Made by a program: the position numbers and the translations under genes. A stretch of DNA of 64,000 bases, from positions 5,811,501 to 5,875,500 of the forward strand of contig NC_070559.1 of assembly GCF_026914185.1 (NCBI RefSeq). Reading direction: 5' to 3'. This DNA is from Puccinia triticina (Eukaryota > Basidiomycota > Pucciniomycetes > Pucciniales > Pucciniaceae). The notes beneath the pieces are model-generated. The model was given only the letters and a program-made list of their open reading frames with translations, did not search any database and was not told the DNA's origin. Of the stretch, positions 36,772 to 64,000 are shown piece by piece (position 1 is the first letter of the stretch; the number at the start of each line of letters is the position of its first letter).

Positions 36772-38911
36772 CGGTTGCCAACCTCCGCCCCAGGAATCCC
36801 CTCGCTTGTCGTGCTCCCTGTCAACCATCGACAGGCCCCGCTCCTCCTTGCATCCACATTTGTCTCCGCCTCCGCAAAACCCGCCACCATCTACCTCAAC
36901 CTCGCTCCATGGAAACGACAAGAGCCGGCGTCAATCATCCAGGACGAGATCGACAAAGAGACCCACAGCCGAGAATCCAACGCGACCAGTCCGACTTCTA
37001 ACCTCCAGTTCATGGAACACAGAATTGAAGAGTTGGAAGAGCTCGTCAAGATACTGGAGGACGAACGAGACATGTCAGAGTTGGTACGAAAGTGTTTGTT
37101 GGGTTGGGTTGATGACGAAGGGGTGAAGAGAGCAACCAACGAATGCTATTACAAGATCTCCTGGCAGCACGGTCGACGTTGGCCGAGAAAGAGCAGGAAA
37201 TCATCACCTTGAATGCCCATCTCAGCGCTGTTTCCCAGCCATCGCGGCCCGTGACAAAACGTGGACGGGAGAAAGCGGGTGAGAAGAATCCGCCAGAGGA
37301 GCAGGAGGAGTGGGGGGAAGAGCGGGATGGGGATGAGGATGTGGACAATCCTGCCAGGCTGATTACTTCCGATTCCTGGGTCTCCATCGGCGCGGTCGCC
37401 AAAAAGCTCAGCCGGGGCCGCCAAGCAAAGGGCGCCAAGACCGCCTCGACTACGCGTGATACTGGGGTTGGACCATCTTCCAAGAGTGCGACCCCAGTCA
37501 TCCAACCACCGGAGGAAGAGGTCGTCGGACAGCCAGAAGTAGAAGCTTCCGAACAACCTGCTCACACGTCGCCGAAGAAAAGGGCTGGAAAGGAGAAAGC
37601 CAAACAACCGAGTTCAGAGGACGAGGATGTCGGCTCTCCTGTAGCCACTGATCGTCGGGAGCCGAGTGTCGAGAAGAACGTCGACGAGCAGCCGGCGAAG
37701 AAGTCTAGACCGGCGAGAGGCAAGGCCGCCAAAAAGACCGCCAAAGCCGCTGTGCGCAAGAACAATGACGAGGATACCCATCAAGAAGTGGAGGAGGAGG
37801 AGAGTAATGAGCACGCGGCTGTGGTGGCCAAACCCCGTGGAGCAAAGAAGCCCGTCGTCGCCGTTCCTCGTGCACGTCGGAAACCGACCACAAAGGCCCG
37901 GGTGGCGGAACCACCAGGTGAGAAAGATCCGGCCGACGAGTCGGATCTGATCGTTACTACCAATGAGGAGGAGGAGGATGGGGATCACGGCGACTCTGCG
38001 ATTCTGGCTATTGCGGACCAGGAGGAGAACGACGATGAGGAGGAGGAGGATGCGTCTCGAGCAGGCGAGGAAGAAGAGGAGGTCGAGTCGGCCGCGCCCG
38101 GGGCTAAGAAAGGCAGACGCCCAGCAGCCCCCGCTCCGCCGCCCCGCTCGCCGTCCCCATCCGGCTCCATCCTCACCCCGCCCTCGCCCTCGCCCGCGCC
38201 GGGAAAAAAGAAGACCGCCAAGCCGGCCGCCCCGGACAGCCCTCAGCCGGCCGCCAAGAAGAAGACGAAGGGCGCAGAGAAGAAGAAGACCAAGGCCAAG
38301 GCCAAGGGCGCAAAGAGTGCGCCGCCTCCCCATATCGCCCCCGATCACGACGCGCGGGAGGGAGAAGATAAGGGCCGCGAGGTCGATGCGGGTCGGGTTG
38401 TCGGTGGGAAGGGCACGAAACGCAAGAGCGGCGCCGCTGCTGACGACCACGACGAAGAGGCCGACGAGGGCCCCGGCGCGCGTGTGGCTGACGGTCCTGG
38501 GGACGACGACGACGACGAGCAGCGCGCGTTGCAAGAAACTCTCAACAAGAAAAAGTAGGCCTAGGTTCCCCCTTTCGTTGTTGTGTGGGTGATCGTGGGC
38601 TGATTGTCTTGCAGGCGGAAGATCTTCCATTCCAAGAAGCCGGCGTTGGCCTGGGCCAGTCATCGGGGCGAAGAGGTACGTCGTCTTCTGCGGGCCGATC
38701 AGAGCCGGATCCACCCACTCACCCTGCTTCTCTCACTCTGTGTTTTTTTTCTTTGTCTTTTTCTTGCGGGGGGGATGGTGCAAAGAATAACATGCTCGGG
38801 CTCCCCCCGGAACTCAGCCCGATCAAGAAACCTGCGCCCCGGGCCGGCGCGGGCAAGAAACGCGGGCCCGGTAAGGCCGGCAATATCCTCCCGCTCTCGC
38901 TCTTGAAATGA
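36772..38911 (+). CDS. Coiled-coil, Lys/Glu-rich protein, probably nuclear; four or more exons
   Basis: Exons: ...-37083, 37131-38554, 38615-38675 and 38786-38911 (TGA at 38909-38911). Introns of 47, 60 and 110 bp are GT-AG and phases agree. From the first in-frame ATG at 37012 the protein would be 560 aa; the frame is open back to 36772, so the true start may be earlier or in another exon. Order: a short coiled coil across the first intron (MEHRIEELEELVKILEDERD, then LAEKEQEIITLNAHL), a long disordered tract with alternating acidic and Lys/Ala/Pro blocks and NLS-like KKRKIF, and a conserved-looking end (NNMLGLPPELSPIKK). GC content is higher than in the neighbours. I do not recognise the family; a chromatin or spindle-associated role is only a guess. 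It looks intact. Confidence 0.7.
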
Positions 38912-40168
38912 CCCTCCCCATCCCTTCTTCTCAATTTGTGTTTGTTTATGTGTCGAGGGTTTCTGAAATCGTCGTCGTCGCACACTCGATATTTGCGTTT
39001 AATGCCGCTTTGTATATGCTTGACTTCTTTATCAAACATGCCCGATGATCTTCCTCCTTTATGTTCCTCTGTCCCGCATCTTTCCAATTGATACAGAGCC
39101 CATCCATCTCTTTCTCTCTCTTTCTTTCTTGTGTGAGCTCTTCTTCTTTGGGCCGTCATTGCTGGCCCTGTTTCCGTGCCAAGCGATCGTGACCTTGGTG
39201 AGGGACCCCTCTGTGTATCCCGGATGTGTGCTTTCTTTTGTTGTTTTACACTCTTTTTTTTCCGAGGGCGGTTTGATGCTAGACATACATGCAGTACTAT
39301 TACTCTTTGTGTAAGCATGACCCGATGCCCGACTGAACGGTAGTAGTGCCCCCAATTACTTCTTTGGTCCCTTGGCCATCGAGGTTCAAGGTTCTCTCAC
39401 TATTAGGGCCACGACTTGCCTGTTTTCAACGGGTTTTTTACGTTTGTCAAATCATTACACATTGCAGTGAAAGGTTTTGTTTGCGGTGAAAAGCTTTAGG
39501 TGGTGTTTGGCATTGTCATGGGGGGGTTCACAATTTGAGGCATTTAAATTGTAAAATTTTGGTAAAATGCACAGCAGCAAATGGTACTGAGCAATCAGTC
39601 TGGATGATCAAATCTTTAAAAAAATGTTCATAAACACCTTAAAATCAGTCCTAAATAGGATAAAATTTTGTAAGTAAGCTGTCATAAAGCTTGACAGTTT
39701 ACTTCCAAATCATCAGGCCAAAAAAACTATTTTGCATGATGTAAAGGGACATGCCGCGATTACTTATTTGCGTAATAATGACACTGCCAAACCTTGCCAA
39801 ACACAGCCTTTTATCTTGGATAGTTCAGAAACAAACACAACAGTCTAGAAAAGGAGCCGATTTTACATGCTCATCATCAACAGAAAGACCAAGTACACAG
39901 TGCACGTTCGACTTGAGAGTCTAGAATTTGATGATTCAAAGACCAGAGAAGAAGAGCCCAAAGAAGATGAGCAGATCTTGGTTGGACTGATTATGGTGTT
40001 CAAAATTGCATAAGATTTTTTTACATAAAATCATAAACTGCAATTTTGGCTGGGAGATGTCACTTTAAGTTTTATGCACGCTGACATCTCCCAGCTAAAA
40101 ATTGGCTTTATGATTTTATGTAAACCGTGACATATGCAATTTTGAACACTGTAGATGACCGGCCCCGT
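38912..40168. other. Intergenic stretch with two candidate MITEs
   Basis: No gene. Contains an element-like unit at about 39499-39808 (GTGTTTGGCA near the left end, TGCCAAAC and GCCAAACACAGCC near the right; weak 3-bp duplication) and the foldback at 39997-40149. Confidence 0.5.
39997..40149. repeat. Foldback repeat, 153 bp
   Basis: GTGTTCAAAATTGCATA at the left end is matched by TATGCAATTTTGAACAC at the right end. Inner arms (TACATAAAATCATAAA and GGGAGATGTCA) also pair. Non-coding. Confidence 0.75.
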
Positions 40169-41068
40169 TGTAAGACTCAAAAGTGTTCCTGAGAACCTTT
40201 TGCTGAATGGAGAAGGGGATGATGGAGGTGCAAACTCTGCCCTTCTATGCTATCAGTCAACAAGACCCACCAAGCTATGCTTGGCAAGTTTTATTCAAGT
40301 GATAGGGTAGGTTGGCTCAAGATGAGTTGTTTGATTGACAAGGTATAGAGCTGATGATTTATATAAGGGTTGGTTATGATTGGTAAAGGTGAATATTGTG
40401 GTGGCTGTGATTGGTGAGTGATGAACTGAGGAGCTGACAACTGGGGAGGAGAGAGCTCCTTATATAGACAGAAGTGGAGCCCCAGAGGGCTTGTGGGTTA
40501 GGGTTTCAGCTGATCTGGACAACAGTGTGAGGGATTTTAGCTGGTGAGAGTAGATACAAATGATGTCATAATGTGTCAGGGGTACATAAATGATGTCATA
40601 AGCATGCAGTAGGGCTGCATGAAGGCTGCGTAAAGTGACAGTAGGCTGCATTAGTTGACAGGTGGATGCAGGGGGTGCATAAATGACGTCTGAACTGCAG
40701 GATCAGTGCGGGATGACATCATAATATGGAAATAGAAGAGTACTTGATACTATGTGATGACTATAGTCTGATGGGGAGATGTATGCTTGTATCCTGTGAT
40801 GTGTATAAGCATAATACTGTGATCCTTGACTTGAGGCTTGTGACAGGCTGGTGACTGGGTATGCTGAACGTGTGATGGGTGTCCATTGTCCAAGGGCGTG
40901 TAGGTTCCAATCCAGAGGGGCTCCAGTGACGCTTCCAGTTGTGACTAGGGGTAAAATTGGCCGTAGAATCCATTTCTGGGGTCCATTTGATGGTATCTTG
41001 AGGCCTAGTATGAGTAATTATGTGGCATAGAAAAAACTTTTTATTTTTCCACTTTTCCGTCTACCACA
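40169..41068 (-). repeat. Gypsy 3' LTR, 900 bp
   Basis: Coding-strand ends TGTGGTAG...GTCTTACA. Near-identical to 52319-53218 and to 11813-12714. Contains the CRE-like cluster and TATA box described for copy B. Confidence 0.95.
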
Positions 41069-42385
41069 TCCTCCCCCAACTTATTGTCTGTCCCCAGACA
41101 ATTTTGACGTGAAAAGTTCTATTTCTCCAACTTTTGAACCTGTGACGTGGGAACTTTACATGAGGAGTAGCTGAATCCTTGGAGGCTGGGTCATTTTGAC
41201 TTCTCTTGGGCAATGTGGCATGAGAGGGTCCGCAGGGTGAAAATTGGCCAAAAATTTGATTTTTGTCAATTTTGGGATTTTTCTTGACGAGAACTTCTTG
41301 TCAGTTCTGGGAGTCAAAGTGCTGCGCGCAGTCTGCAGTCCGCAGTTGCGCAGTTGCGCAGTGGTGCTGCCTGTGCTGTGGTGGCGGCCGCAGCTGTTGC
41401 TCTAGCGCTTTAGGGTGCGTGCTGTCGAAGCCGCGGGCCTCGGGTGTCAAGTAGTGATTGGGGACTCGCACCCGCTTTTGATGGTTGACTGATCGGGCTT
41501 TGGGCCCGGGTACTTAGTGTTGGTCGTACCCGCCCAGCAGCTATCCCAATCCCGCGGGGTCGTCCAATGCGCCGTAGTCCTCTTGTCGGATTACGCGTAA
41601 TCCGACAAGAGGACTGCGGTGCTGCGAGTGTACAGGGCGGTTCGGGTCTTGAGTGTTCCCACCCCGCCACGGGGTATGTATATGTATATCGGCCCTACCC
41701 CTTGGGGGGGGTATTGATATATCGACTCGACCTCTGCCAGCAGCTGCTTCTCAATCCAACTTCGCCGATCTTCCGGCTCCTTTGACTACGTCACCAGTGC
41801 CGCTGTCAACCTCAGGCGAACGCAAGGCCTCGACCGTGTTATTCCCAAGCCAGACAGACTGAACTCTGCTGGCGGGCAGAGTCCATTGTTTGTGGTGAGT
41901 TTTCTTTCCTCCTTTCTTAATAGCTAAGTAGCTATTACGTTGGCCAATGTCGTTATGCAGCTGTCAGATTGATTGCAGCTAACACTCGCGCCACCGTCTT
42001 TTTTGACAGGTCTCCGCGATTTTTTCTTTTTTTTTTTTTGGTTGGAGGTCTGTAGCCGACCAGGTATGTACATTCAATCCAAAATGTGTGTAGTAATTGG
42101 CCGTAAGGCGGCGAGCACTGAGATGTCACTTGTTGCCGGTTGTTTAGGTGGCCGGCCAGCCGATGATGCTCAGCCGTGGGTCCGTACACCTAAAGTCCCG
42201 GGGAGAGAGATGGCCCCGCACTCCGTTCTACTCGACTTTATGTGGGATCGGTAATCGGTCAAGCCAAACAATACCTCCTCTAGTCGTGTACGGGTCCCAG
42301 TTTCCGTTCAGAGGCCGCTTGTGGGGCAAAAGTTCCATTGCCGTTCCCTCAAGTGCCAGAGGCCCCCCACAGGATTTGAGGTGAG
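41069..42385. other. Upstream region of the antisense gene, with a 40-bp palindrome
   Basis: Non-coding by inspection. The part next to the LTR (to about 41310) is nearly identical in copy B; beyond that it diverges. Several possible splice sites occur (for example GTGAGT at about 41893), so untranslated exons upstream of 42386 are possible. Confidence 0.45.
41576..41615. repeat. 40-bp perfect palindrome, no loop
   Basis: AGTCCTCTTGTCGGATTACG at 41576-41595 is the exact reverse complement of 41596-41615; the centre is ACGCGT. The matching region of copy B (about 11300-11430) lacks it. Confidence 0.92.
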
Positions 42386-42393
42386 TATAAAAA
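42386..42393 (+). promoter_or_regulatory. TATA box of the antisense gene
   Basis: TATAAAAA, 95 bases before the ATG at 42488, followed by a pyrimidine-rich leader (CCTCTTTCCCCTTCTC) such as often holds fungal transcription starts. Confidence 0.6.
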
Positions 42394-42487
42394 CCGAGTC
42401 CCTCTTTCCCCTTCTCTGTTTGTCATCCACCTCATCGCTTCCTCATCCATTTTACTGTAGAGCAGTGTGTTGACTTCTTTTACCGTT

Positions 42488-44083
42488 ATGTCCCACCGAC
42501 CTTACTATAGAACCTACTTTCCTCCTACCCCTTACCCTTTAAGAAACCACGGGGCCTCCGCTGGAGCTTCTGAGTGTGTGAGTAGATAATTTTATGTAGG
42601 GGCGCCGTTATTTTCCCCGTTGACGGGCTCTGCTTGTATTTAGCCAGGGTTGTCCATCCATAACCCCATCCTGATTGTGGATGGGCCGCTTTATCACGCC
42701 GAGTCCATCACACCGACCTGGATCCAGTGGACCCAGGCCCGTCTGGACGCTTTTAACAGGCCCAACAATGCTAGAAACCGGGCCGCTCGAGGTCCTGAAG
42801 CCCGCCCGTTTGTGGTTGATCCGGCCGCAGCGGCTAGAGTGGCTTCGGTAAGTATCCGACCGGGTTTTTATCTTTTTTTTTTTTAGGCCGCTGATCCTCT
42901 CCGATTATAGTTCACAGAGCCGGCTCGCCCGGATTCAGCGGTGAGAGCTCCTTCTCCGCCCCGAACCCCCCCAGGATTGGAGGGCTTGCACCCCCGATCC
43001 GAGGATCCTTTCGTGAGTTTCTGATTTGTCTCCCTCCTATTCTCACCTCGGGAATCTGATTAAGCGTTCTGTCCTCAAGCTTGTTTCGCCAGCTCGTCCA
43101 GGGTCAGCTTTTAGGACCCCGTCTCCGTCTCGGGTTCCCCCTGGATTTGTGGGGTTACATCCTCGCCTTCAGGCTGTTCCGACTCCTGAAGCCGTCGGGA
43201 ATCCACTGGCTTCACCGGTATTTTGACACCAGACCCCCAACTCGGGGCCTTTGCCGGGTTCTCCTGCATTCCCACCAGCGACCAACGCGGATAGCAACGT
43301 AAGTCTCTCTTCTCTCGCCGAATTTTTGTGATGCCCTGGCTGATCCGGTTTTGGATAGTTTTTGTCCTCCAACCGAGTCGTCCTGGATGACAGCTGGGTC
43401 CTCCCACCTGCTCTGTGTCCCAGCAACCTTACGTCGCCAGCTTCAGACTGCGAAATGTTGGGGCCCAATGCCGTAGTTGGCGCTTACAGGGACCCGGAAT
43501 CTACGGGTTCGGACGGCTCTTCGCGGGAAGCGCCTACTGAATCTGCGACCTCCTCAACGGGAGCCACTAGTTGCTTCAACGACTGGGGTTCCGGGGTAAT
43601 TTATTTTTTGATTCGTCCTTGAGTGTTTGATCAGGTTCTAATTGGTGGTCATTTCTCTTCTTTTAGGTTCCTGCCAACGTTGTCCAAAACCCGACCTGGA
43701 CTCCAATGCCTGAGGCCAACCGGCCTACTTCCTCCGACGCGGACGAGGTCACTGACTCTGATGGGGACGTCAGCATGACCAATTCTTATCGAGTTCCATC
43801 ACCTGACGTCCCTGGTGAGTATTGTCTTGCCGACTACCCCTTTTTAAAAGAGTCGCAAATCGCTCTTCTCCTTGATCAAGATGCTCCGGAGGACCCGGAC
43901 GCTGATCCGATTGATTCGGCGGCCTATCATCGACTCTACCAAACCTTTGCCTCCCTCTTTGTGAGATTCTGCCGCCGCTGTCAACCTTCCAGCAACGACA
44001 AGCGGATCCAACGCCTCTTCCTTTTCAGAGCCATGGCAGATGAATATCAATCCGCAATTCGACCGGACCTTCAAGATGACTGA
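42488..44083 (+). CDS. Six-exon gene antisense to the gypsy element (cargo protein, 422 codons)
   Basis: Exons 42488-42577, 42644-42847, 42911-43012, 43080-43298, 43359-43595 and 43667-44083. All five introns are GT-AG (66, 63, 67, 60, 71 bp) and all exons are whole codons (30, 68, 34, 73, 79, 139 with stop). The protein is Pro/Ser/Asp-rich. Exons 3 and 4 repeat one motif (PARPDSAVRAPSPPRTPPG and PARPGSAFRTPSPSRVPPG). The last exon is acidic (DSDGDVSM, PEDPDADP), then a helical, Arg-rich end (LYQTFASLFVRFCRRC). An in-frame TGA at 43224-43226 breaks exon 4; copy B has CGG there. No known family recognised. The gene lies between integrase and the 3' LTR and is transcribed against the element. 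Antisense extra ORFs at this place are known in some plant gypsy elements; a spliced one in a fungus is, as far as I know, unusual. Confidence 0.75.
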
Positions 44084-44763
44084 TTCTGTAAGTTGATCTT
44101 TTCTTTTTCCTTCTGGTCTAGTTCGTGATCCTAACGTGTTTTCTCCTTCTTTTTCCAGCCTGTCCTTTTTTCTTTTTTTCTTTTTTTTTTTTTTTTTCGT
44201 GACTCCTGGGGCAAAATTTCCACAAGAAAGCCAAAAAAATCGACATATACTTTAGAAAACCCCCCAAAAAAATGTAACCCCTGAAATGATTAGTTATTCT
44301 ATTCTATTTTATTTTATTATGATGTTATCTTTTGTTTATCCTTTAACAGAGAATTAATCCATCAGTCCCCCCTCCCCCAACTTCACAGGTTGTCCCCAAC
44401 CTTCCCTTTTGAGAGAGAGAGAACAAAAAAGAAAAGAGGTGAGAAAGAAAAGAGTGTTTGTTTGAAGTGAGTGAGGTCAACTGAATGAGTAAGTTGTTCT
44501 GTTTGTCTGTTTGATCAGTTGATGTGGTTTTTTTTTTTTTTTTTTTAAGGAAAGTTTTTGAGAAAAAGAATGTGAGTTCCTCCCCCAACTTAAAAAAAAT
44601 GACCAGTGTTTATCATTGAACAGTTTAGTCTCTTGTCCAGGAGAAAGACTTAGTTCGAAATAATGGATGCATTATCATCAGAGTTTGTGTTGGAGTTTGC
44701 CTCTTCATCATCAGACAATTCAGGTTGAGTGGGATCCTTGTCATGCTGAATATTGGCCAAGCT
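44084..44763. other. Spacer between the antisense gene and integrase
   Basis: The two genes converge here. The stretch has T-runs (about 44161-44198 and 44527-44546) and no coding sequence; it probably holds the 3' end of the antisense transcript. Confidence 0.45.
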
Positions 44764-45502
44764 TCATCCTCGTGGGTAAAACCGTTTAATATGTGAAGCT
44801 GCGTAAGCCCTCTTCAGTTCTACCCCGTCCAATTCCTCCAGAATGTAAGAACCCTTTGGTAACTGTTGCTTGATTCGAAAAGGCCCATTCCAGCGATTGG
44901 CAGAAAGCTTGCCCCATTGGTCTTCCAAACTCTTATTATAAATAAGCACTAATTTGCCTGGGTTTAAAGGTTTACGGAGCCTAGCCGCCATCCTTCGATC
45001 CCAGTATCTGACCGAAGAATTCCTAGTTTTCATTAACTTCTCGTGAGCTATTCCCAGGATCTCTTCTCGGCGTTCCAGCTGCATAGTTCTGGCTTCCAGA
45101 AGTTCCTCCGTTGTGCTGATTTCAGTCCAATCAATTCCCAGATAGGTGTCCATTTCTAAATCGACTGGAAGAACCGCCTTTTGGCCAAAGACTAATTTGT
45201 AGGGTGAGTACCCAGTCGTTCGCTTGGTTGAAATTCTATCAGCAAAGAGTACTAATGGAAGATACTCTTTCCATTTTCCTCCAGATTCACCACACATCTT
45301 GATTAAGGTGTCCTTGATTGGTCGGTGTCCTCTTTCAATCATTCCATTAGCTTCCGGATAATACGGAGTGGGTGGTTTGAAAGCCGCTCCAATCTTTTCC
45401 ACAGCTTTTAACTCATTCTTAAACTCAGGCCCATTATCTGCCGAGACTGTCTTGATTACGCCATAACGGTAGACCCATTCTTCCAAGAGAAATTTTCCAA
45501 TA
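44764..45502 (-). pseudogene. Gypsy integrase, catalytic core end and C-terminus
   Basis: The frame enters from the CACTA insertion at 45502 (IGKFLLEEWVYRYGVIKTV) and contains the second Asp (VSADNGPEFKNEL) and the Glu (PYYPEANGMIERGHRP) of the DDE triad, then a basic C-terminal region (LRKPLNPGKLVLIYNKS) like the GPY/F module. Ends at 44764. Intact apart from separation from its N-terminal half. Confidence 0.9.
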
Positions 45503-46498
45503 CACTACAAACATTTATTATTTTGCCCAAAAAAGAAATAAAAGTCAACATGAAAAAAATGAAACCAAAATTTCACTCAGGGGAACAAACTGAGCATGCT
45601 GAGCCAAAAAAATAAAATGTCCCAAACTGAGCAAAAATCATTGGAAAATGTTTTGGGATGGTTTTTTTTCACAGGCCTGGTGGGCCTGGAGCGGGCTTGA
45701 GCGGGCCTGAGACGGGTCTGCCCCAAAAGCACTTTGGGTCTGTATTAAAGGAGTTTTGTATTGCCCTGGGAGCTGCTGGGGCTTTTGATGGGCCCAAAAT
45801 CTCAACATGGGCTTTTGGTGGTCTAGAAGTATTAACCTGGGCCACTGAATAGCCCATGGGCCTTTGAATTCCCAGAAAGCCCACCATGGGCCCCCACATA
45901 GCTAATGGGCTCTTGGTAGCCCATAAAGATCCCCACAGGCCAACAGATACATCCATCATGTGATCCCATGGGCTGTTTGCTTCCTTTCTGGGCCACAAAA
46001 AACCCATGGGGAACGTTTTGGACCACCAAAAGCCCATGAGGATATCTGTTGGCCCATGGAGATCTTCATGGGCCACAAAAAGCCCATGGGGGTCTCTGTT
46101 GGCCCATGTGGGCTTTCTGGGAATTCAAAGGCCCATGGGCTATTCAGTGACCCAGGTTGATACTTCTAGACCACAAAAAGCCCAAGTTGAGATTTTGGGC
46201 CCATCAAAAGCCCCAGAAGCGCACAGGGTAAGGCAAAACTCCTTTAATACTGACCCAATGTGCATTTGGGGCAGGCCAGTCATAGGCCCGCCCCAGGCCC
46301 GCTCAAGCCCGCTCCAGGCCCGCCAGGCCCCTGAAAAAACCATCCCAAAACATTGTCCAATGATTTTTTCTCAGTTTGGGACATTTCATTTTTTTGGCTC
46401 AGCATGCTCAGTTTGTTCCCCTGATTGAAATTTTGGTTTTATTTTTTTCATGTTGGCTTTTATTTCTTTTTTGGGAAAAATAATAAATGTTTGTAGTG
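45503..46498. mobile_element. CACTA-type foldback element, 996 bp, inser­ted in integrase
   Basis: Termini CACTACAAACATTTATTA and the reverse complement, with inverted arms of nearly 500 bp. The 3-bp duplication ATA lies at 45500-45502 and 46499-46501. The centre is built of GCCCATGGGC-like palindromic words. No transposase. Removing it with one ATA rejoins the integrase in frame between the first and second catalytic Asp. Confidence 0.9.
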
Positions 46499-47658
46499 AT
46501 AGTGGCCGCTGTTAATTTGACCAAAGGGGCTGCTTCTACCCATCCAGATAAGTCGTCTCTGGCCACCAGTAAGTATTTGTATCGTCCGGCTTTGATGTGG
46601 CAGATGTCCAAGGCTACTCGTCCAAATAAGCTGCTTTCTCCTGTTGGATGTCGTATCTCCCGAGGTACTAAGGGGTCCCGCTTCTGGCATGGTGCACAGC
46701 TCTGAACCCATAACTTCACTTTTTTCTTCAGGCTTGGCCACCAAAATCTGCAAACTAGTCGCTGGTATGTTTCCTCAAGTCCCCGATGCCCAAGATCCTC
46801 GTGAGTCATTCTCAAAAGTTTACTTTGGTAGGCAATTTTGGAGATAACTAGTTGGGCCATGGGTGAGTGCCTTCGCATAAGTCTCCCATCCTGAATGAAA
46901 TAATTTGCTGATTTTCGTTTGAGTTTCTGAAACTGGTCCACATCCATAGCGTGGGGTTTGCGTAATGTCCTTAAATATTCCTTAAGATCTGTCCAAAATC
47001 CCGGCGCTTCCCATTCCAAGAGCTCGGTGGATGCAGCCGAAAAAAATTGGAGCTGAGAGCAAGCTTTAATTACTGGTTTGTCTTCATCAAAATCCTCTGC
47101 GTCATTATAGAACTCGTCTTCCTCATTGCTTATTGGTCTCCTTGAGAGCGCGTCCGGCATTGTGAATGTTTTCCTGGGTTTATGGACCATGTCGAAGGAG
47201 AAGAGATGGATGAATGATACCCATCTGGTCATAGGGGCATTTGGAAGCAAGGGGGCGTTAATCATTTGGATCAAAGATTGAGCATCAACTTGCAGTTCGA
47301 AGTGCTGTCCCCAGAGAAGTGTTTGTAGTTTCTTGAGGATTCTTGCCACGCCACAGAGTTCAAGTTTTGGCTGAGAATATTTTGATTCCACTGGTGAAAA
47401 TACCACTGATTCGTATAACACTGGCCGGTTTAACCCTGTCTCAAGCTCCTGTTGAGAGAGCACTGCTCCTGCTGCGATGAAGCTGGAGTCCACCGCCAAA
47501 ACGATAAGTCCTCCGTGTTCCAAGTAGTCCAACTTCTTCAGTGTAATGTCTTCTCCAATTATTTGCTTGAGCCGCTCAATAGCGTGGTTACAGTCATCGT
47601 CCCAGCACCACTCGGTATCCTTTCTTGTGAGCTTCCTGAGAGGTGCTGCAATCTCCAA
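46499..47658 (-). pseudogene. Gypsy RNase H and integrase N-terminus
   Basis: RNase H: LIVLAVDSSFIAAGAVLSQ, ESKYSQPKLELCGV, FELQVDAQSLIQM and MPDALSRRP. Integrase HHCC finger: HEDLGHRGLEETYQRL...CAPCQKRDP. First catalytic Asp: VALDICHIKAG. The frame is joined to RT only after a one-base change in a run of seven A (plus-strand T, 47663-47669). It is cut by the CACTA element at 46499. Confidence 0.9.
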
Positions 47659-49066
47659 TAAGTTTTTTTACAAAGATTCTAACATAAGTTACTATTCCCA
47701 TGAATCCTTGTAGTTCGGTAAGATTGTTTGGGGTGGGCCATGTCGTAATTTTGTTCTTCTTCTGAACTGAGACCCTTCTTCCTTCCTTACAGACCACGTG
47801 ACCAACAATATCCAAGGCAGGCACACAGCAGGCAAATTTCTTCCCGGAAATGGTTAGTCCAGCCTCTTCGATTCAAAACAAAACCCTTTCAAGTGTTTGC
47901 ACATATTCCCAAATGAAACGCCGTATTCCTGGATTTTCCTCTAGTACTTCGTCATCGTATGTTGAACATGGTCCCTTGATGCCGCCGTCGTCAATAAATA
48001 CGCCTACGTGTTCTGGTATCTCATCCTGAAGAATCCACATCATTTGTGCTTGATACACGGCTACCGAATTAGTTGCACCTTGGGGAAATCTTGTGAGCTG
48101 GAATCTACCCAAAGGTGTGTCAAAGGTGGTTAAAGGCCTTGATTCCGGAGCCAATTCTCTCTCATCATAGCCTCCCATGATATCGACTAATCCGTTGCAT
48201 GCGCGTCCTGCAAATGATTCTACAAATTCTTCTGTTGCCGGTGGCAGCCCTGCGTCTTTAATTGTGACTTTGTTCATTTCTTGTAGATCATGGACTATTA
48301 TTAATTTTCCGTCGTGCTTAAGTACGCAAAAGACCGGGCTCGAGGAACTGGAGGTAGACTGTTCGTAAAGTTTTGTACAAATTCGTTCTCTGACCAATTC
48401 TACGTATTTGTCTTTTACAGCAGCCGGTATAGGAATTGGTTTCTTCTGCCAAGGCACGTGATCCACCACGGGAATAATATACGGTAACCCATAGGTATGC
48501 TTCAAGAGTCCTTGTTCTTCCGGGCTGAATGCCAAGGCTTTTTCCCGAATAAGGATTAGATTCTTGAAGAGCTTCAACTCTTCTTCCCATAGCCATCCTT
48601 CCGGTCCAAAATTAACTACCTTCAGGTGTTCTTCCGTAATCCTCGCGGTAGGCTTGAAGTCCGGAGGGTTTGGCGTAAGTGGTGTGTTGTAAGGATCTTG
48701 TGAAAGTGGTGGTCGTTGAAGCGGAGGATTTAATGCTTGAGGAATTGGTTGATTGATTGGTCTGATCTTCTTTGCTACAGGTTTATACTTAGTCATACAC
48801 CATAGTTGTCCCTCCCTCCAGCTCTGACATAATTGATCCTGAAACGTTATGCCTAGCCCTTTTGTGAGTAGTGCCTCCGTTTCCTTGTATGTGGGACTGG
48901 GTTTAGAAACTGTTGACGATATGGTGGTGGTTTTGACAAGAACCATTGTGTGGTGATTTAGTTTTTCTGATGCAGGCTTATTCACCCGAGTTTCCCGTAG
49001 TTTTGTCTTGAACATTTTGAGTAATGCGAGAAAGCTTTTCAGAATATTCTTGTTTGTTAGCATCAA
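47594..49066 (-). pseudogene. Gypsy reverse transcriptase
   Basis: Starts about 49066 (first residue from TTG, so the real start is uncertain). RT landmarks: LIIVHDLQEMNKVTI, FDTPLGRFQLTRFPQGATNS and the catalytic FIDDGGIKGP (Phe in place of the usual Tyr). A TGA at 47873-47875 (TTT-TGA-ATC) interrupts before EEAGLTISGKKFACCVPALD; the same frame then runs to the A-run frameshift at about 47665. The upstream protease is separated by about 145 bp with stops, so RT was expressed as a separate ORF or by a mechanism I cannot see. Confidence 0.88.
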
Positions 49067-49212
49067 TTTAAAGAAATATTTTTTTATTTTAATTGATAGA
49101 GTTTTGATTGATTTGAGGATTATTTTTTTAAGCCAGTCAAAGAAACCCGGTGCTCGAGATATAACCCGCTTGACTAGCTGGAGTGAGTTTTTCCCTAGAT
49201 GAACGCCGGTAT

Positions 49213-49995
49213 TTATAAAAAATGATCATTTGTCTTCTTTTTGAACATTCGCTCCTCATCGTTGATAGTAGAAGTGGGGTTCTGGCCCATGTCTGGCTTC
49301 ACGACGTTGGTACTGAGATCCTTTCGATTATCCCAACCTTGCCCTTGACCAATACGTGCTAGAGGTACTGACACCCGCCTTCCTTTGGTTCCTTGGAAAG
49401 AGAGTGTCTCCCCGGTATCATGGTACTCCAATGTGCAGCCGTAGTCAAAAAGAAAGGGACGTCCCAGGATGCAGTCTTGTGCTTTTGGTGATATGAAGAG
49501 ATGAGCAGGTCCAGCAAATTGACCAATTCTTACTGGGCAGTTTTCTGCTACTCCCGTGATGTCGCACCTGGCTCCGCCAACTCCTTTCATGGGTATTTCG
49601 ACTTGTATCCTCTCTAGATCCAGATTGTCCGCTACTGATTGGGGCATGACATTTACCATAGACCCAGAATCAACCATAAAATCGACTTTAGCTCCCCCAA
49701 CTTTGGCTGTTACATATCCCAAAGCGCAACTGTAGTAGCATGGATCCGATTGATCTTCTACTGGTGGAGTGGCCATCGCTGCTGCTACCTTTGTGGCTTC
49801 TGTTGCCTGTAAGTGGTGGTATTCTTCCCTGGCAGTCGTCCTTGTAGCTTTGCAATGACTCGCTCCGTATATGAAGGTGAGATTGCTGTGAGCTGCGCAA
49901 AAGTCGTTGGAATTTTGACGTGATCCAAGTCCTGTAGGAGGGTTTCTTCCGGTGAATCTTTTTTCAGGATAGTTGGTACTTTTTCTCGACTCCAA
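49213..49995 (-). pseudogene. Gypsy aspartic protease
   Basis: Active site FMVDSGSMVNVMP, followed by the flap/late motif DCILGRPFLFDYG. The useful frame begins near 49830 (EEYHHLQATEATKV) and needs a one-base shift from the zinc-knuckle ORF. A gag-pol type frameshift here could be programmed, but no slippery heptamer was recognised. Ends at 49213. Confidence 0.8.
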
Positions 49996-50459
49996 ACCTT
50001 CCCAGGTGCTTTCCTTGGCGTTTCTTTAGGCAAGTTATCTTCTTCCTCTTCTTCATCAATATCCATGGTTTCTCTTTCCGGTTCTTGAATCCTAACTCCG
50101 TGTCTTCCTTTCTGAGCTTCTGCTCTAGTGACTGCATGTGTTTTCATAAAATTTTCCGATCCTAAGGACGGGGGATTCCAATCCACGGTTTGTACTGAAG
50201 CCTTCATTACTGGAGTGGTACCGTTCCCGGTTTGACAGGATTTTGCCAGATTCCTGATTGATTCTTGCATCTCTGGTCTTGCAGATTCTGTGGCTACCAC
50301 TGTTCGTATTGGTCTAGAAGGTACCCAGGGTATGTGCTGCCCATTGGGTAGTAACCAGTCCTTTTCTGCTTGTCTAACCAGTCCTTGCTCTTCATCCTTC
50401 AAGTATTCTGGACATTTTGATGTGGAGTGGCCTTCCCGCTTGCAATAGTAGCAAACCAT
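49785..50459 (-). pseudogene. Gypsy nucleocapsid zinc knuckle and linker
   Basis: CCHC knuckle CYYCKREGHSTSKC near the start, followed by a charged linker (EEEEEDNLPKETPRKAPG). In frame with Gag upstream, separated by TGA at 50484-50486 and eight codons. Ends about 45 bases past the point where the protease frame begins. Confidence 0.85.
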
Positions 50460-50483
50460 CGTCTCGTACAGTGGAGTGGAGGG

Positions 50484-51725
50484 TCAGGAGTTTCCTCTGG
50501 CAAATTCCTGTTTGTCAGACGGGCCTTGTCTATTATAACTTGATGGTGGGTCATTCTTCATCTGTTGCTTGAGAGCTGCCAATTCTTGATGCAAATCGTT
50601 AAGTTTTTGTTCCACAGCTTTGTCGTTTGGGGTTTCTTTCAGCATTTGTTCTCGTTGTCTTCCGTTGCCTTTCTTGGTATCCAGATCTTTCTGCATTAGT
50701 TGGTTTGATTTGGAGAAATGCGAGAAGCTATTATAGCCTTCATCTACCCTAACTTTGGTTTCTGCAGCCTTAGTTAAGTGTTCCCATTTTGGTGCCTTGT
50801 TACTTCCATCCTTAGCCCTTGGTAGTTGATTCTTGTTGACTAGGGTGCGCTTGATACTTCGTTGACTTTCCGCTGAGAATGCACTTAAAAATAGGATTCC
50901 GGCATCGCTTTCTTTACTGATGTGTTCATTTTTTACTAGATATTTGAGGATTGGGGTAAACTTCGCCAGGTACGCTTTGTATTCCCAGTGACTTGAAATT
51001 CCTTCTTTTGCTTGAATTTTTGCCACCTTGATTAGATCATCCACAGTATACATGACGGTTTTATCCAAATCTCCCCAAGCTGTGACCATTTCCGCTCGAA
51101 GTTTTGCCCAGTCGTAATCATCGTATCCGTCCATTTCTTCGAGTTGGCATTTTAATTCCTCCGTCCGTATGAATCGTAAGATCTGGACTACTTTGTCATG
51201 ATCTGAAGCTCCGTGTGCGTATGCTGTTCTTTTGAACCGGGTCAGAAATTTCATAAACTGGCTTCCTTCGTAGTAGAGCCCTGGATCTTTTATGATGATT
51301 GGTTTGGAGGGGTGCGCCGGTTGGAATGGTGGAGTCGGGACCCGTGGTTGTGGCCTCATAGGTTCTTGCCGAGATTGAGACTGATATTGTCTTTGTTGAA
51401 ATTGAGGCTGATACATTGGTTCTCTGACATTTTCAGTGTTATGAATTCCATACCCTGACGGCTGTTGTCGTGGTGTCGTTTGTCTGGGAGGGATATTCTG
51501 GTGTTGTGGAGTTTCATCGGAGTCGGACAGCCCTTCTTCAGCTTGATCTCTGAATTTGTTTTCTGGTTCTTTCCCTTTTTCTTTTCGTGGAGGCGGCGGA
51601 GGGTTCTGGGATTCCAAAGTCCAAAACGATCCAGAGGGTCCTGCCAATGGTCTGTTCCTAAACGGGGTAGAGGGAGCGAATCCATCTTCCAAATCTGGTG
51701 TGCTGAATGGTAAATTCATGTTCAT
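50484..51725 (-). pseudogene. Gypsy Gag (capsid)
   Basis: ATG at 51725, 413 codons. Pro/Gln-rich N-terminal third, then a helical capsid-like region (FLTRFKRTAYAHGASDHDKV, WDLDKTV-type segment, LAKFTPILKYLVK) as in retrotransposon gag families. TGA at 50484-50486 (TCC-TGA-CCC) cuts off the zinc knuckle that follows in the same frame, so the stop is probably a mutation of CGA. Confidence 0.85.
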
Positions 51726-52318
51726 CTTGTTGATTCTTAGTTTTCTATTATGTTGATCCTTGGCTTCCTGTTACTGTGCTCTGAAAAAGAAACAATAATA
51801 TCTGGTCTCTGGTCTCTTTACCAGGGCAAATTGGGGGTATTCTTTCAATATTTGATATAAATAACTTCACCGTGCTGGGAGTGTTCTTCAAACAGTATCC
51901 AATTATCTGAATCCTTAGGTACTACACACCGTCGTTCAGTATATAATTGGCCGCCTCCTTCGAGTGGGCTCCAGAGTTTTCTTCTAACAGTATCTAATTA
52001 TCCGGATCCTTAGGTACGACACACCGTCTTCCAGTATATAATCAGCTGCTTCCTTCAAAATACTCCTTCCAGGTCCGGTGGTTATACGTTCTCTTCAGAG
52101 GTTTGTAATTGGTCCCTTAGATGGTTCGTAATAGTTGACTAGTCTTTCAACAGAATAACTGAATATGCCGTTGAGCGCTCTTGATTTGTTGATGAATTTG
52201 ATTCCTTTCGTCGTTAGAAGCTAAGATCCCTTGACGAGTTCTTCTGGATATGTGGAATTCGGTTAAACCTATACTTTGTCGATTGAACAAGATTATCCTA
52301 TCACGTTGGGGACTCCCT

Positions 52319-53218
52319 TGTAAGACTCAAAAGTGTTCCTGAGAACCTTTTGCTGAATGGAGAAGGGGATGATGGAGGTGCAAACTCTGCCCTTCTATGC
52401 TATCAGTCAACAAGACCCACCAAGCTATGCTTGGCAAGTTTTATTCAAGTGATAGGGTAGGTTGGCTCAAGATGAGTTGTTTGATTGACAAGGTATAGAG
52501 CTGATGATTTATATAAGGGTTGGTTATGATTGGTAAAGGTGAATATTGTGGTGGCTGTGATTGGTGAGTGATGAACTGAGGAGCTGACAACTGGGGAGGA
52601 GAGAGCTCCTTATATAGACAGAAGTGGAGCCCCAGAGGGCTTGTGGGTTAGGGTTTCAGCTGATCTGGACAACAGTGTGAGGGATTTTAGCTGGTGAGAG
52701 TAGATACAAATGATGTCATAATGTGTCAGGGGTACATAAATGATGTCATAAGCATGCAGTAGGGCTGCATGAAGGCTGCGTAAAGTGACAGTAGGCTGCA
52801 TTAGTTGACAGGTGGATGCAGGGGGTGCATAAATGACGTCTGAACTGCAGGATCAGTGCGGGATGACATCATAATATGGAAATAGAAGAGTACTTGATAC
52901 TATGTGATGACTATAGTCTGATGGGGAGATGTATGCTTGTATCCTGTGATGTGTATAAGCATAATACTGTGATCCTTGACTTGAGGCTTGTGACAGGCTG
53001 GTGACTGGGTATGCTGAACGTGTGATGGGTGTCCATTGTCCAAGGGCGTGTAGGTTCCAATCCAGAGGGGCTCCAGTGACGCTTCCAGTTGTGACTAGGG
53101 GTAAAATTGGCCATAGAATCCATTTCTGGGGTCCATTTGATGGTATCTTGAGGCCTAGTATTAGTAATTATGTGGCATAGAAAAAACTTTTTATTTTTCC
53201 ACTTTTCCGTCTACCACA
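52319..53218 (-). repeat. Gypsy 5' LTR, 900 bp
   Basis: Same length as the 3' LTR. Differences seen: GGCCATAG vs GGCCGTAG and TAGTATTAG vs TAGTATGAG. TATA box on the minus strand at 52608-52616. I could not assign the primer binding site just inside it. Confidence 0.95.
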
Positions 53219-53340
53219 CCGTTGCCCCCGCCAGCAACATACCTCGACCTTCCTATAATCCATCATCATGTGCGACTTTGGATGCACCTTACCAGAAGCA
53301 TACTGCACCTCGAGAACAACCAGAATCGTTTGTTCTTTGA

Positions 53341-60714: not shown

Positions 60715-61037
60715 GAGCATTTGCATTCGTTGGGTTAAGTTGACGATTTTGGGCAACTTAACCCAAGCGGCAATCGCATTGGTCCAGGCTAACCCCGGGT
60801 CAACAAGCCTCAGGTTTGATTTCAGGCTAAGGTCAGCTAAATTTAGCAAGCCTTAACCTGAAATCTAGCCTCAGGCTAGGGTGGTCTGCGACTCATTTCA
60901 GCTCACTTTAGCCTGAAACTGACCTGAAACTGACCGAACAAATGCGTTTGCCCACTTGAAGGCAACCTCGTCAGCTAACCTGCCTACAAACCCGGGCTTA
61001 TTTAACCCAAAAACTTAGCGAACAAATGTGAATGCTC
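60715..61037. mobile_element. MITE with GAGCATT termini, 323 bp
   Basis: Starts GAGCATTTGCATTCGTT and ends AACAAATGTGAATGCTC. 3-bp duplication TCA (60712-60714 and 61038-61040). Internal repeats of AGCCTGA/TCAGGCT words. Non-coding; Harbinger-like by the termini, but the superfamily is uncertain. Confidence 0.75.
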
Positions 61038-61150
61038 TCAGAAAGCTGTGGCTCAGACCTTTGGAGGTGCTGGGGGCGGAGCAATTAAAAAGTTAAAAAA
61101 CCTTACAGCCATTTGGTACTTTCTGCTGCCCTATGTGGGGATAATATGTC

Positions 61151-62050
61151 ATCAAACTGGCCAAGCAGTTGTCTGAGGAGGTTCCCTCCTCATAAAACTG
61201 GCCAAGCAGTTGTCTGAGGAGGTTCCCTCCTCATCAAACTGGTCAAGCAGCTGTCTGAGGAGGTTCCCTCCTCATCAAACTGGTCAAGCAGTTGTCTGAG
61301 GAGGTTCCCTCCTCATCAAACTGGTCAAGCAGTTGTCTGAGGAGGTTCCCTCCTCATCAAACTGGTCAAGCAGTTGTCTGAGGAGGTTCCCTCCTCATCA
61401 AACTGGTCAAGCAGTTGTCTGAGGAGGTTCCCTCCTCATCAAACTGGTCAAGCAGTTGTCTGAGGAGGTTCCCTCCTCATCAAACTGGTCAAGCAGTTGT
61501 CTGAGGAGGTTCCCTCCTCATCAAACTGGTCAAGCAGTTGTCTGAGGAGGTTCCCTCCTCATCAAACTGGTCAAGCAGTTGTCTGAGGAGGTTCCCTCCT
61601 CATCAAACTGGTCAAGCAGTTGTCTGAGGAGGTTCCCTCCTCATCAAACTGGTCAAGCAGTTGTCTGAGGAGGTTCCCTCCTCATCAAACTGGTCAAGCA
61701 GTTGTCTGAGGAGGTTCCCTCCTCATCAAACTGGTCAAGCAGTTGTCTGAGGAGGTTCCCTCCTCATCAAACTGGTCAAGCAGTTGTCTGAGGAGGTTCC
61801 CTCCTCATCAAACTGGTCAAGCAGTTGTCTGAGGAGGTTCCCTCCTCATCAAACTGGTCAAGCAGTTGTCTGAGGAGGTTCCCTCCTCATCAAACTGGTC
61901 AAGCAGTTGTCTGAGGAGGTTCCCTCCTCATCAAACTGGTCAAGCAGTTGTCTGAGGAGGTTCCCTCCTCATCAAACTGGTCAAGCAGTTGTCTGAGGAG
62001 GTTCCCTCCTCATCAAACTGGTCAAGCAGTTGTCTGAGGAGGTTACCTCC
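61151..62050. repeat. 41-bp minisatellite, about 22 copies
   Basis: The unit contains CAAACTGGTCAAGCAGTTGT and then TGAGGAGGTTCCCTCCTCA, which is an 8-bp stem with a TTC loop. The first two or three units differ slightly (GGCCAAG, CAGCTG, one unit 40 bp); the rest are virtually identical, and the last differs at GTTACC. 41 is not a multiple of three and no long frame crosses the array. Confidence 0.97.
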
Positions 62051-64000
62051 TGTTACGAGTAAATATCACAGCTCTCCACCATAAGGATGAGCTGAGGAGA
62101 GATCCTCACCTCTCCCCATCTAGAAATCTATCAACTGTCTAGCAAACCCGCGCGGAAGAACACGGAGACGTTCCTTCCTTCCCCTTGAACAATTCCTAAC
62201 ATATTGCTAGATCTACCTACCAGGGGCGAGGACCAAGGACCAAAACACGAAATCAGAAAACTGAACAGACTGAACCACCAAAACCCAGAACCCCAAACGT
62301 GATCATCCAGAACCAGAACCAAGACAAGGACAAACAAAACCCTCACCTGAACCAAGCGGGAGATCAAGACCGCCGAACGAAATGGCTGCACTCCAACAAT
62401 GAGTGGTGTTAATCAACAAACTAAATATGTATTTCTGATAAGCAATCTGAATAAATACATGTGATAGAATAAAATAAGAGAAGATAAAATACCTCAAGGC
62501 AAGGAGAACAAAGATAGCAAGCATGCGGAGAACGCAGATAGCAAGCATGCGGAGAACAAGAGACACAGGACACCAGACAACTAGCTCAAAAGGAAAATAA
62601 TGTCAATGTTGATGTTTGATGAGAAGGTTGCAGTTTGAGAATGATCAGCCAGAACCTACAAATTGATTTGAATGGAGTTGCCAAAATAGGAAAGGGTCAG
62701 CGGTTTGTTGGAAGGGAGGGAGAAAATGGAGACAACACAACAAAGGCAAAGACAGAAGAAAAGATGATGATGATGATATTCACAATAAAATATAATGTGA
62801 AAAAGATCAACCAGTGATGATGTCAAGGTGGAGGAACAACAAGATTAGTTTAAGCTATGAGGCAGTGAGATGATGAATACTGCAGGTTCCCTGAGAGAAG
62901 AAGAATTGGTTGATGAAGAAGGGAACTTCATATATTGAGGAATCAAAGATAGGAGGAACCGAGCGGAGTTCTTGCAGGGGAACGTTGAGAGGACCAAGAG
63001 CCAAATGATGTCAGTTGAGACTGGGGCCACTAGAGATCTAGAGGGATTTCACATGAATGGAGGACTTCCCGTTGAGATCTACAGGCCCTGCAGCCCCTGG
63101 GACGGCATTTCCCCGCAAAAATTAAGGTTTTCTGGCTGCAGATCTGGTTCTGCAGGGGGCTGTAGGTTGACGGGAGGTCCTCCAATATCAACATTGCTTT
63201 CTTTGCAACCATGGTACTTTCCTCTATTAAAGATGCTCTTGATGTACCAACCTGTTTCTTAGTTTTTCTTTTCCCTCAAGAAATCCAAAAGTTGAAATCA
63301 AGTTTGTTTCTTCATTATGCAGTTCTCAGCATCTACCCATGCTTTGGCCCTAAAAAGGAGATCATGTATACCAGTGATTGCTTTGTTTGAGTGTAAGAAG
63401 CATGGCGGACTCTGCCCATCAATATACAATTTATGGCCAGATATTTTCTGAAACACTCAAAATGAAGGACCTCACAGCCTCACATGGAAGGCATATTTTC
63501 ATGGCAAGTTTTTGACTGAGAGTTTTCTGGCTTCCCTCCCTTGGAATAATTGGCTTGTAATACATATCAGTATCTTTCTAGCTCACTTCATGAGGACTGC
63601 AGTGAAGAAAAAAAAAATGATCATAAAGAAGCAGAATTTATACTTTGAATTGAGCTCGACAACACATGTCATATTGAGGGGTTCAAACCTGAGTACAATG
63701 CACCAACAAGAGTTGGGGAGCATGTCGTTTGTTCGGTGTGTCTTGGTATGAAGCTAAATATGTAGTTTTTTTGAGGCTTACTGCGTGCCCATTCATTGCA
63801 TGTTTCGACGAAGAACTGCCGAACTGGTGTAGCCTAAACAGCTGCTTAGAGCGCTTCTGCGGAGGTTCATGACCTAAACATGCATATTATCAAGTGAGTT
63901 ATCCTGAGCTCATTCCATTCATTATACACTTTCCTTCTGTTCTTATTCTATCCCACAGATCTCTGTGCATTTATACCATTATCGGCTTGACTAACAGATC
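62051..64000. other. Right end of window: no gene recognised, small repeats
   Basis: Contains a 23-bp direct duplication (AGATAGCAAGCATGCGGAGA at about 62512 and 62535) and the MITE at 63059-63183. Frames are short and unsupported. A gene may begin beyond the edge. Confidence 0.4.
63059..63183. mobile_element. Very short MITE, 125 bp
   Basis: Termini GGAGGACTTCCCGT and ACGGGAGGTCCTCC, arms continuing imperfectly over about 38 bp (CTACAGGCCCTGCAG / CTGCAGGGGGCTGTAG). Flanked by AAT on both sides (63056-63058 and 63184-63186). Confidence 0.7.

What the first reader, a model, noticed from the sequence alone, without database searches (positions are those of the whole stretch)
42488..44083. Six-exon gene carried antisense inside a Ty3/gypsy element
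Seen: between integrase and the 3' LTR, on the strand opposite to gag-pol, six exons join with five GT-AG introns, all in phase 0, behind a TATA box; total 423 codons. A retrotransposon copies itself through spliced-capable RNA, so introns survive only if the gene lies antisense to the genomic transcript, which is exactly the arrangement here. Known: antisense extra ORFs at this position exist in some plant gypsy elements. Inference: the element carries a cargo gene, expressed from its own promoter, that may silence, regulate or help the element.
Basis: partly seen in the sequence, partly recalled or inferred. Interest (0 to 1): 0.88.

Follow-up and report, generated by a model that had tools for sequence, protein, structure and literature searches.

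The report
Spliced antisense gene in retrotransposon lineage
Most members of a lineage of jumping elements in the wheat leaf-rust fungus carry, on the strand opposite to their replication genes, an extra gene of about six predicted exons whose protein has been kept by selection and likely helps the element to regulate itself, although the copy in this window holds a stop codon.

Summary
The gene is real, but this copy is not an open 423-codon frame: exon 4 holds an in-frame TGA (43224-43226). The window is Puccinia triticina Pt15 haplotype A. Six predicted exons lie antisense to gag-pol between integrase and the 3' LTR of a young Ty3/gypsy element (LTRs differ at 2 of 900 sites). In 8 aligned copies, 39 of 40 introns are GT-AG, 47 of 48 exons are multiples of 3 while introns vary freely, and mean dN/dS is 0.26. 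Genome-wide, 70 of 98 matches have integrase within 900 bp downstream on the opposite strand, none on the same strand. Of 112 listed integrases at least 75% identical to the window's, 81-88 have a clearly homologous gene beside them, 92-100 with a more doubtful type; at 60-70% identity, 0 of 21. Families differ to 13-57% identity in the C-terminal domain, yet selection is purifying. PtA15_3A108 maps residue for residue onto a sister copy in six exons. Best reading: an ancient accessory gene of the lineage, likely a regulator, not recent cargo. Transcription and function are untested.

The parts
40169..53218 (-). Ty3/gypsy LTR retrotransposon (whole element, gag-pol on the - strand)
   Evidence: LTR pair 12,150 bp apart; protease, RNase H and integrase domains; flanking CCGT or CCGTT at 40165-40169 and 53219-53223
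40169..41068 (-). 3' LTR
   Evidence: 2 differences in 900 bp to the 5' LTR; TG...CA ends seen in the sequence
52319..53218 (-). 5' LTR
50484..51725 (-). gag-like frame
   Evidence: ORF; no Pfam family above cut-off; named by position
49213..49995 (-). aspartic protease
   Evidence: Asp_protease_2 1e-08
47873..49066 (-). reverse transcriptase
   Evidence: RVT_1 1.2e-06, 28.8 bits, just under the Pfam cut-off of 29.6
46408..47658 (-). RNase H and first part of integrase
   Evidence: RT_RNaseH 4.2e-18, Integrase_H2C2 1.2e-16
44764..45486 (-). second part of integrase
   Evidence: read as the continuation of the integrase frame beyond the insertion; used as the integrase query; no Pfam hit of its own
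45503..46498 (.). foldback insertion that splits the integrase of this copy
   Evidence: 165-bp inverted arms, 96% complementary
42386..42392 (+). TATA box (TATAAAA), 102 bp before the ATG
   Evidence: at -91 to -108 in 9 of 12 aligned close copies, the window included; TATA-like at -83 to -147 in 16 of 18 more distant loci with an identified start, 21 loci examined
42488..42577 (+). antisense gene, exon 1 (start codon)
42644..42847 (+). antisense gene, exon 2 (HNPI / DGP.Y / QW...RL motifs)
42911..43012 (+). antisense gene, exon 3
43080..43298 (+). antisense gene, exon 4
43224..43226 (+). in-frame TGA within exon 4 of this copy
43359..43595 (+). antisense gene, exon 5 (SNRVV..DSW motif)
43667..44083 (+). 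antisense gene, exon 6 with stop: acidic stretch and a C-terminal domain, helical in low-confidence models
   Evidence: 98 matches in the genome, the window included, some being pieces of one copy

Best explanation
The feature is an accessory gene carried by most members of a Ty3/gypsy retrotransposon lineage of Puccinia triticina: it lies antisense between integrase and the 3' LTR, is predicted to be transcribed from its own TATA promoter and spliced from six exons, its protein is under purifying selection, and it likely acts as a nuclear regulator of its own element. Shown by calls: position, strand, conserved exon frames, conserved splice dinucleotides, conserved TATA box, selection on the protein, presence beside most listed integrases of the lineage, the stop in this copy. 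Inferred: in the genomic RNA the introns read as CT-AC, so they would pass through reverse transcription unspliced; only an integrated copy, transcribed from its internal promoter, would give the spliced message. The protein (in the window a basic part before the stop and an acidic part after it, no membrane-like segment) would then act in trans on chromatin or transcription of its own family, as is proposed for other antisense accessory genes.
For: Eight close copies: 39 of 40 introns GT-AG, 47 of 48 exons a multiple of 3 while introns run from 57 to 72 bp, intron distance 0.191 against exon 0.107, third-position excess (with for the one AT donor); mean dN 0.068, dS 0.265, ratio 0.26 over 28 pairs, the frameshifted L011 exon 5 left out; ratio 0.16 over 18 of 21 pairs within and between two sister families, three pairs saturated. 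Own gene finder: in two of five close copies tried (L002, L004) exons 1, 2, 4 and 5 with the same boundaries and exon 3 with an acceptor 6 bp earlier, and multi-exon models with mostly phase-0 introns in sister loci. Public model PtA15_3A108: 476 of 476 residues map onto L036 in six exons with five GT-AG introns; PTTG_05371: 254 of 258 residues agree with the L052 model across four junctions. 70 of 98 matches have integrase within 900 bp downstream on the opposite strand, 0 there on the same strand; random placement mean 0.06. Clearly homologous gene beside 81 (strict) to 88 (loose distance) of 112 listed integrases at >=75% identity, 92 to 100 with L053-type frames counted. TATA box kept. pI 10.4 and 4.2 for the window parts before and after the stop; no 19-residue window above 1.42 Kyte-Doolittle in these and six public proteins. 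Nuclear location of maize Grande GENE23 as reported in PMC7264820 (section 7).
Against: No RNA evidence was examined. The window copy and 6 of the 7 other copies in the selection set hold at least one in-frame stop, so most of these cannot make the full protein. No Pfam hit above cut-off and no PDB relative, no clear nuclear signal (only short basic runs in some public proteins, whose overall pI is 4.7-6.0). Both structure predictions were of low confidence (mean pLDDT 45.7 and 37.7). The nuclear role is analogy. PtA15_3A108 uses an upstream first exon with the TATA box inside its first intron, so the start is not settled. The gene finder gave wrong last exons in several close copies and another frame for exon 5 in the family of L034 than the public models. 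Five of eight inspected loci without a listed integrase showed none in the stretch held.
Confidence: 0.55

Rival explanations
1. The antisense protein is a particle or import factor: it joins Gag or the pre-integration complex and helps packaging or nuclear entry, without regulating transcription.
For: Kept together with integrase across the lineage; nuclear import of the pre-integration complex is one role discussed for plant antisense ORFs (PMC7264820 section 7).
Against: It would be made from a separate antisense, internally promoted, spliced message, an odd route for a structural part (inference); no Pfam hit of a Gag or zinc-knuckle kind.
Confidence: 0.2
2. Only the antisense RNA matters: it pairs with the genomic RNA and feeds small-RNA silencing, and the reading frame is incidental.
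For: Spliced antisense transcripts of Ty3-type elements without meaningful peptides are reported in barley powdery mildew (PMC10648671 passages); small RNAs and CG methylation mark young transposons in stem rust (PMC8444563 passages).
Against: Third-position excess, frame-keeping indels, dN/dS 0.26 and 0.16, and protein motifs shared between families whose integrase synonymous sites are mostly beyond correction point to a protein.
Confidence: 0.07
3. A host gene was captured by one element and carried along as cargo.
For: Introns are unusual in retroelements (general knowledge); one intact copy (L052) lies without gypsy pol in the stretches read.
Against: Beside 81 to 100 of 112 listed integrases of the lineage; family divergence too old for recent capture; only P. 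triticina models in three protein searches; L052 has five sister copies at 90-95% DNA identity, two of them within 700 bp of a listed integrase, one 5.6 kb from one and one with integrase in the stretch read (L076).
Confidence: 0.06
4. An envelope-like gene.
For: Lies between pol and the 3' LTR.
Against: Antisense instead of sense; no transmembrane-like segment in six public proteins or the two window pieces.
Confidence: 0.02

Closest known systems
brtn of Boty-like retrotransposons (Botrytis cinerea; Zhao et al. 2011, seen only as cited in passages of PMC8365987, PMC7264820 and PMC4227169)
   Same: Additional antisense gene in a fungal LTR element, grouped with BcGypsy1 in PMC8365987
   Different: An ascomycete host; I saw neither its sequence nor its intron status, so homology is untested; here five introns and a lineage-wide family
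Antisense ORFs of plant elements Grande (gene23), RIRE2 and Retand (TRP28) (PMC7264820 passages and section 7; PMC11963269 passages)
   Same: Antisense, between pol and the 3' LTR, in most copies of a lineage; own promoter and nuclear product reported for Grande
   Different: No TRP28 (PF04195) hit here; the word intron does not occur in either main text; fungal host
HBZ of HTLV-1
   Same: Antisense coding gene of a retroelement, reported nuclear (PMC11963269 passage)
   Different: HTLV has its antisense promoter in the 3' LTR (PMC7264820 passage); here the TATA box is internal, about 1.3 kb from the LTR. That HBZ is a bZIP protein is recalled; no such Pfam hit here
Spliced antisense lncRNAs of Blumeria hordei transposons (PMC10648671 passages)
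   Same: Spliced transcripts antisense to Ty3-type elements in a biotrophic fungus
   Different: Those were reported to encode no meaningful peptides; this gene shows selection on the protein

Membership tests
Ty3/gypsy LTR retrotransposon | LTR pair, target duplication, protease-RT-RNase H-integrase order | tested here: met
   RT just under the Pfam cut-off; integrase split by an insertion in this copy
Antisense accessory ORF (aORF-3R) of LTR retrotransposons | antisense to gag-pol, between pol and 3' LTR | tested here: met
   70 of 98 matches with integrase within 900 bp downstream on the opposite strand, 0 there on the same strand
Antisense accessory ORF (aORF-3R) of LTR retrotransposons | present in most copies of a lineage | tested here: met
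   81 to 88 of 112 listed integrases at >=75% identity, 92 to 100 with L053-type frames
Antisense accessory ORF (aORF-3R) of LTR retrotransposons | transcribed from its own promoter | tested here: inconclusive
   TATA box conserved; no transcript data
Retand/TRP28 antisense proteins | TRP28 domain PF04195 | tested here: not met
   no such hit at E<=1
Boty brtn | sequence homology to brtn | not tested
   sequence not at hand
Envelope-like genes | sense orientation and transmembrane segment | tested here: not met
   antisense; maximum 19-residue hydropathy 1.42
HBZ-type genes | promoter in the 3' LTR; bZIP domain (recalled) | tested here: not met
   TATA at 42386, LTR ends at 41068; no Pfam hit above cut-off
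Non-coding antisense transposon RNA | no selection on an encoded protein | tested here: not met
   dN/dS 0.26 and 0.16

The most novel reading that the evidence does not exclude
The introns are a licence: because they can be removed only from the antisense message of an integrated copy, and never from the genomic RNA, the element's regulator is made in proportion to integrated DNA copies. The gene would then be a copy-number sensor or a family-specific anti-silencing factor, shuffled between elements by recombination, and at least one orphan copy (L052) may have been taken over by the host.
Probability: 0.15. Interest if true: 0.85.

Novelty: new variant of a known kind. Interest (0 to 1): 0.62.

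Why it matters
Antisense accessory genes of LTR retrotransposons are known from plants and at least one ascomycete, with roles still undetermined. A multi-exon version kept by selection in most members of a fungal lineage, with several families, roughly a hundred copies and a conserved TATA box, gives a comparative set in which the question 'what is the antisense gene for' becomes testable. It also bears on how an element can keep introns through an RNA stage, and warns annotators: such genes stand in public gene sets as hypothetical proteins (PtA15_3A108, PTTG_05371 and others).

Tried and rejected
Pfam with window exons 2, 5 and 6, two family pieces, and four joined models: no hit above cut-off. 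PDB by sequence: nothing. AlphaFold2 with 3 and with 13 sequences: mean pLDDT 45.7 and 37.7; two long C-terminal helices and a short one before them appear in both; no fold search was run because the models are too poor. Integrase piece against phage records: no match. Rapid divergence read as an arms race: rejected, because between families integrase synonymous sites are mostly beyond correction and the antisense gene is under purifying selection; integrase is simply far more constrained. The gene finder gave wrong last exons in several close copies, another exon 5 frame in the family of L034 than the public models, and doubtful or failed models in others (for example L045, L050, L053, L057). 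Anti-silencing of the VANC kind was considered (search listing only: PMC5735166, PMC10398659); no binding motif was sought. Region L072 was cut on the wrong side of its integrase and says nothing on the gene.

Print searches for an antisense gene in rust gypsy elements: none seen in the listings or in the passages read of PMC3579696 and PMC12210899. The library lacks most subscription journals; Repbase reports were not searched.

Full report
WHERE THE WINDOW LIES. The window is G000:C2:5811501-5875500 of an assembly with 122,823,596 bases in 18 contigs. These two numbers, and the length of contig C8 (7,485,535), equal the total length, contig number and N50 given for Puccinia triticina Pt15 haplotype A in PMC9927501 (passages). 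Protein hits to P. triticina agree.

THE ELEMENT. LTRs at 40169-41068 and 52319-53218 differ at 2 of 900 sites and are flanked by CCGT(T). With the formula and rate used in PMC9927501 (T = K/2r, r = 1.05e-9) this is about one million years; the rate is theirs and rough. On the - strand follow a gag-like frame, aspartic protease, reverse transcriptase, RNase H and integrase. The integrase of this copy is interrupted at 45503-46498 by a foldback insertion.

THE GENE IN THE WINDOW. But exon 4 as drawn has an in-frame TGA at 43224-43226. The window copy is therefore broken as a full-length frame. Of the eight copies of the selection set, seven, the window included, hold at least one in-frame stop in exons 1-6; copies without one exist.

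IT IS CODING. DNA search with exon 6 found 13 copies, the window included, one of them interrupted. I aligned 12; the interrupted one was left out. Eight were used for selection tests; four were dropped because upstream parts are missing or not homologous (L005, L008, L012) or exon 5 is truncated (L007). In the eight: 39 of 40 introns are GT-AG (the intron 4 donor of L003 begins AT); 47 of 48 exon lengths are multiples of 3, with in-frame differences of 3, 6 and 9 bp (L011 exon 5 is frameshifted); introns range from 57 to 72 bp; mismatches by codon position are 987, 633 and 1920; mean distance is 0.107 in exons and 0.191 in introns. Mean dN is 0.068 and dS 0.265, ratio 0.26, over 28 pairs (L011 exon 5 left out). 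Single ratios run from 0.16 to 0.88; the closest pairs have the highest, as expected for copies that decay after insertion. The integrase part of seven of these copies gives 0.29 (21 pairs). The figures come from my own Nei-Gojobori script, with stop codons skipped.

IT HAS A PROMOTER-LIKE ELEMENT. TATAAAA lies 102 bp before the ATG, and a TATA box lies at -91 to -108 in 9 of 12 aligned copies, the window included; the other three lack a homologous upstream region. In 21 more distant loci I found the start peptide in 18, with a TATA-like hexamer at -83 to -147 in 16 of 18. Many of these loci are close kin of one another. Transcription itself is untested.

IT BELONGS TO A LINEAGE. The exon 6 protein has 98 matches in the genome, the window included. 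76 have a listed integrase downstream on the opposite strand within 6 kb, 70 of them within 900 bp, none there on the same strand. One match (L046) has a same-strand integrase 4.3 kb upstream. Random placement gives a mean of 0.06 and a maximum of 2 in 2000 trials; four contig lengths were replaced by their mean. Of the 22 without a listed integrase I had stretches around eight: integrase or a remnant of it was there in three (L051, L076, L075) and not in five (L032, L038, L045, L046, L052); the other 14 were not looked at. The integrase list holds the best 150 of 2209 candidates, so counts are lower bounds. With four further queries, a clearly homologous gene is beside 88 of 112 listed integrases at >=75% identity to the window's when 6 to 6.5 kb is allowed, and beside 81 of 112 under limits of 1 kb for the last exon and 2.5 kb for exon 2. 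Counting L053-type frames, whose homology is not proven, the numbers are 100 and 92. At 70-75% identity it is 4 of 17 or 0 of 17, at 60-70% 0 of 21; one locus of the last group was read (L055) and showed no such gene.

IT IS OLD. Between nine family representatives the C-terminal domain is 13-57% identical (median 27%) where the integrase part is 70-95% identical. Of 15 pairs of families, 10 have integrase synonymous sites beyond correction, and the other five have dS 0.91 to 2.74. Over two sister families the antisense domain has mean dN 0.167, dS 1.06, ratio 0.16 (18 of 21 pairs, within and between families), against 0.03 for integrase; within the two families the ratios are 0.34 and 0.23. 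So the gene is less constrained than integrase but constrained. The most divergent relative (L054) is 13-18% identical to the others and rests on a profile E-value of 3.4e-5 in a search of the frames of five loci. L053-type elements have an antisense multi-exon frame in the same place whose homology is only suggested by short motifs.

IT IS SHUFFLED. L002 matches L004 at 179 and the window at 31 informative sites in 42150-43340, but the window at 106 and L004 at 10 in 43341-43790 (Fisher p about 1e-44): a recombinant with a switch near intron 4. L009 and L011 show weaker shifts (p about 2e-5), L003 none (p 0.23). Window and L004 differ at dS 0.49 in the antisense gene and 0.045 in the integrase. 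Template switching during reverse transcription is the likely cause (inference).

INDEPENDENT GENE MODELS. PtA15_3A108 (P0009) maps onto L036 over 476 of 476 residues in six exons with five GT-AG introns. It has an upstream first exon, and a last intron of 46 bp whose acceptor differs from that of the sister model PtB15_10B460. PTTG_05371 (P0003) agrees with my L052 model at 254 of 258 residues across four junctions. The Pt15 annotation combined cDNA, other transcripts and ab initio predictors (PMC9927501 section 15), so these models are support, not proof of splicing. Protein searches against 5.8 billion sequences returned 1, 3 and 10 proteins, all from P. triticina (in the last only the 7994 candidates sharing most words were scored). 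Repeats are often masked in proteomes, so absence elsewhere is weak.

MECHANISM. The shown steps are above. Inferred: introns are invisible on the genomic RNA, so they survive the RNA stage; a nuclear copy makes the spliced message from the internal promoter; the product, without membrane-like segments and, in the window, with a basic part before the stop and an acidic part after it, regulates its family in the nucleus. The last step rests on analogy with Grande GENE23 (PMC7264820 section 7) and is the weakest. The eight copies show excess private C-to-T and G-to-A changes at CpG: 54 at 228 CpG bases against 84 at 948 other C or G bases, consistent with the CG methylation of young transposons reported in stem rust (PMC8444563 passages), so a counter-silencing role is possible but untested.

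AGAINST. No RNA data; most close copies broken; no known domain; poor structure models; start codon not settled between the TATA-proximal ATG and an upstream exon; some matches without integrase nearby.

VERDICT. Real, coding, antisense, intron-bearing and typical of the lineage: about 0.95. Nuclear regulator of its own element: about 0.55. New variant of a known kind.

Noticed in passing
L052 (G000:C17:2672800-2677600), with L073 and L074: An intact six-exon antisense gene without gypsy pol matches in the 8 kb read downstream or the 6 kb read upstream, followed by a tandem array of 80 copies of a 29-bp unit; possibly an orphan or host-adopted copy.
   Followed up: partly
L070 and L071: Deletion derivatives that, by eye, keep a gag-like frame (with a protease-like frame and an RT piece in L070) and an exon 2 piece of the antisense gene.
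   Followed up: no
window 45503-46498: Foldback element with 165-bp outer arms (96%) and 203-bp inner arms (88%) inside the integrase.
   Followed up: no
window 61026-62186: Tandem array with a 41-bp unit.
   Followed up: no
window 37143-38558, + strand: 471-aa frame rich in lysine and acidic runs, upstream of the element; probably a separate host gene.
   Followed up: no
window 51879-52056: Repeat of 95 bp, 1.9 copies, between the 5' LTR and the gag-like frame.
   Followed up: no
integrases C1:9085329, C3:8523271, C13:5184990, C15:2928890: Sister elements with one uninterrupted frame of 1973 aa over the integrase and a strongly diverged antisense frame.
   Followed up: partly
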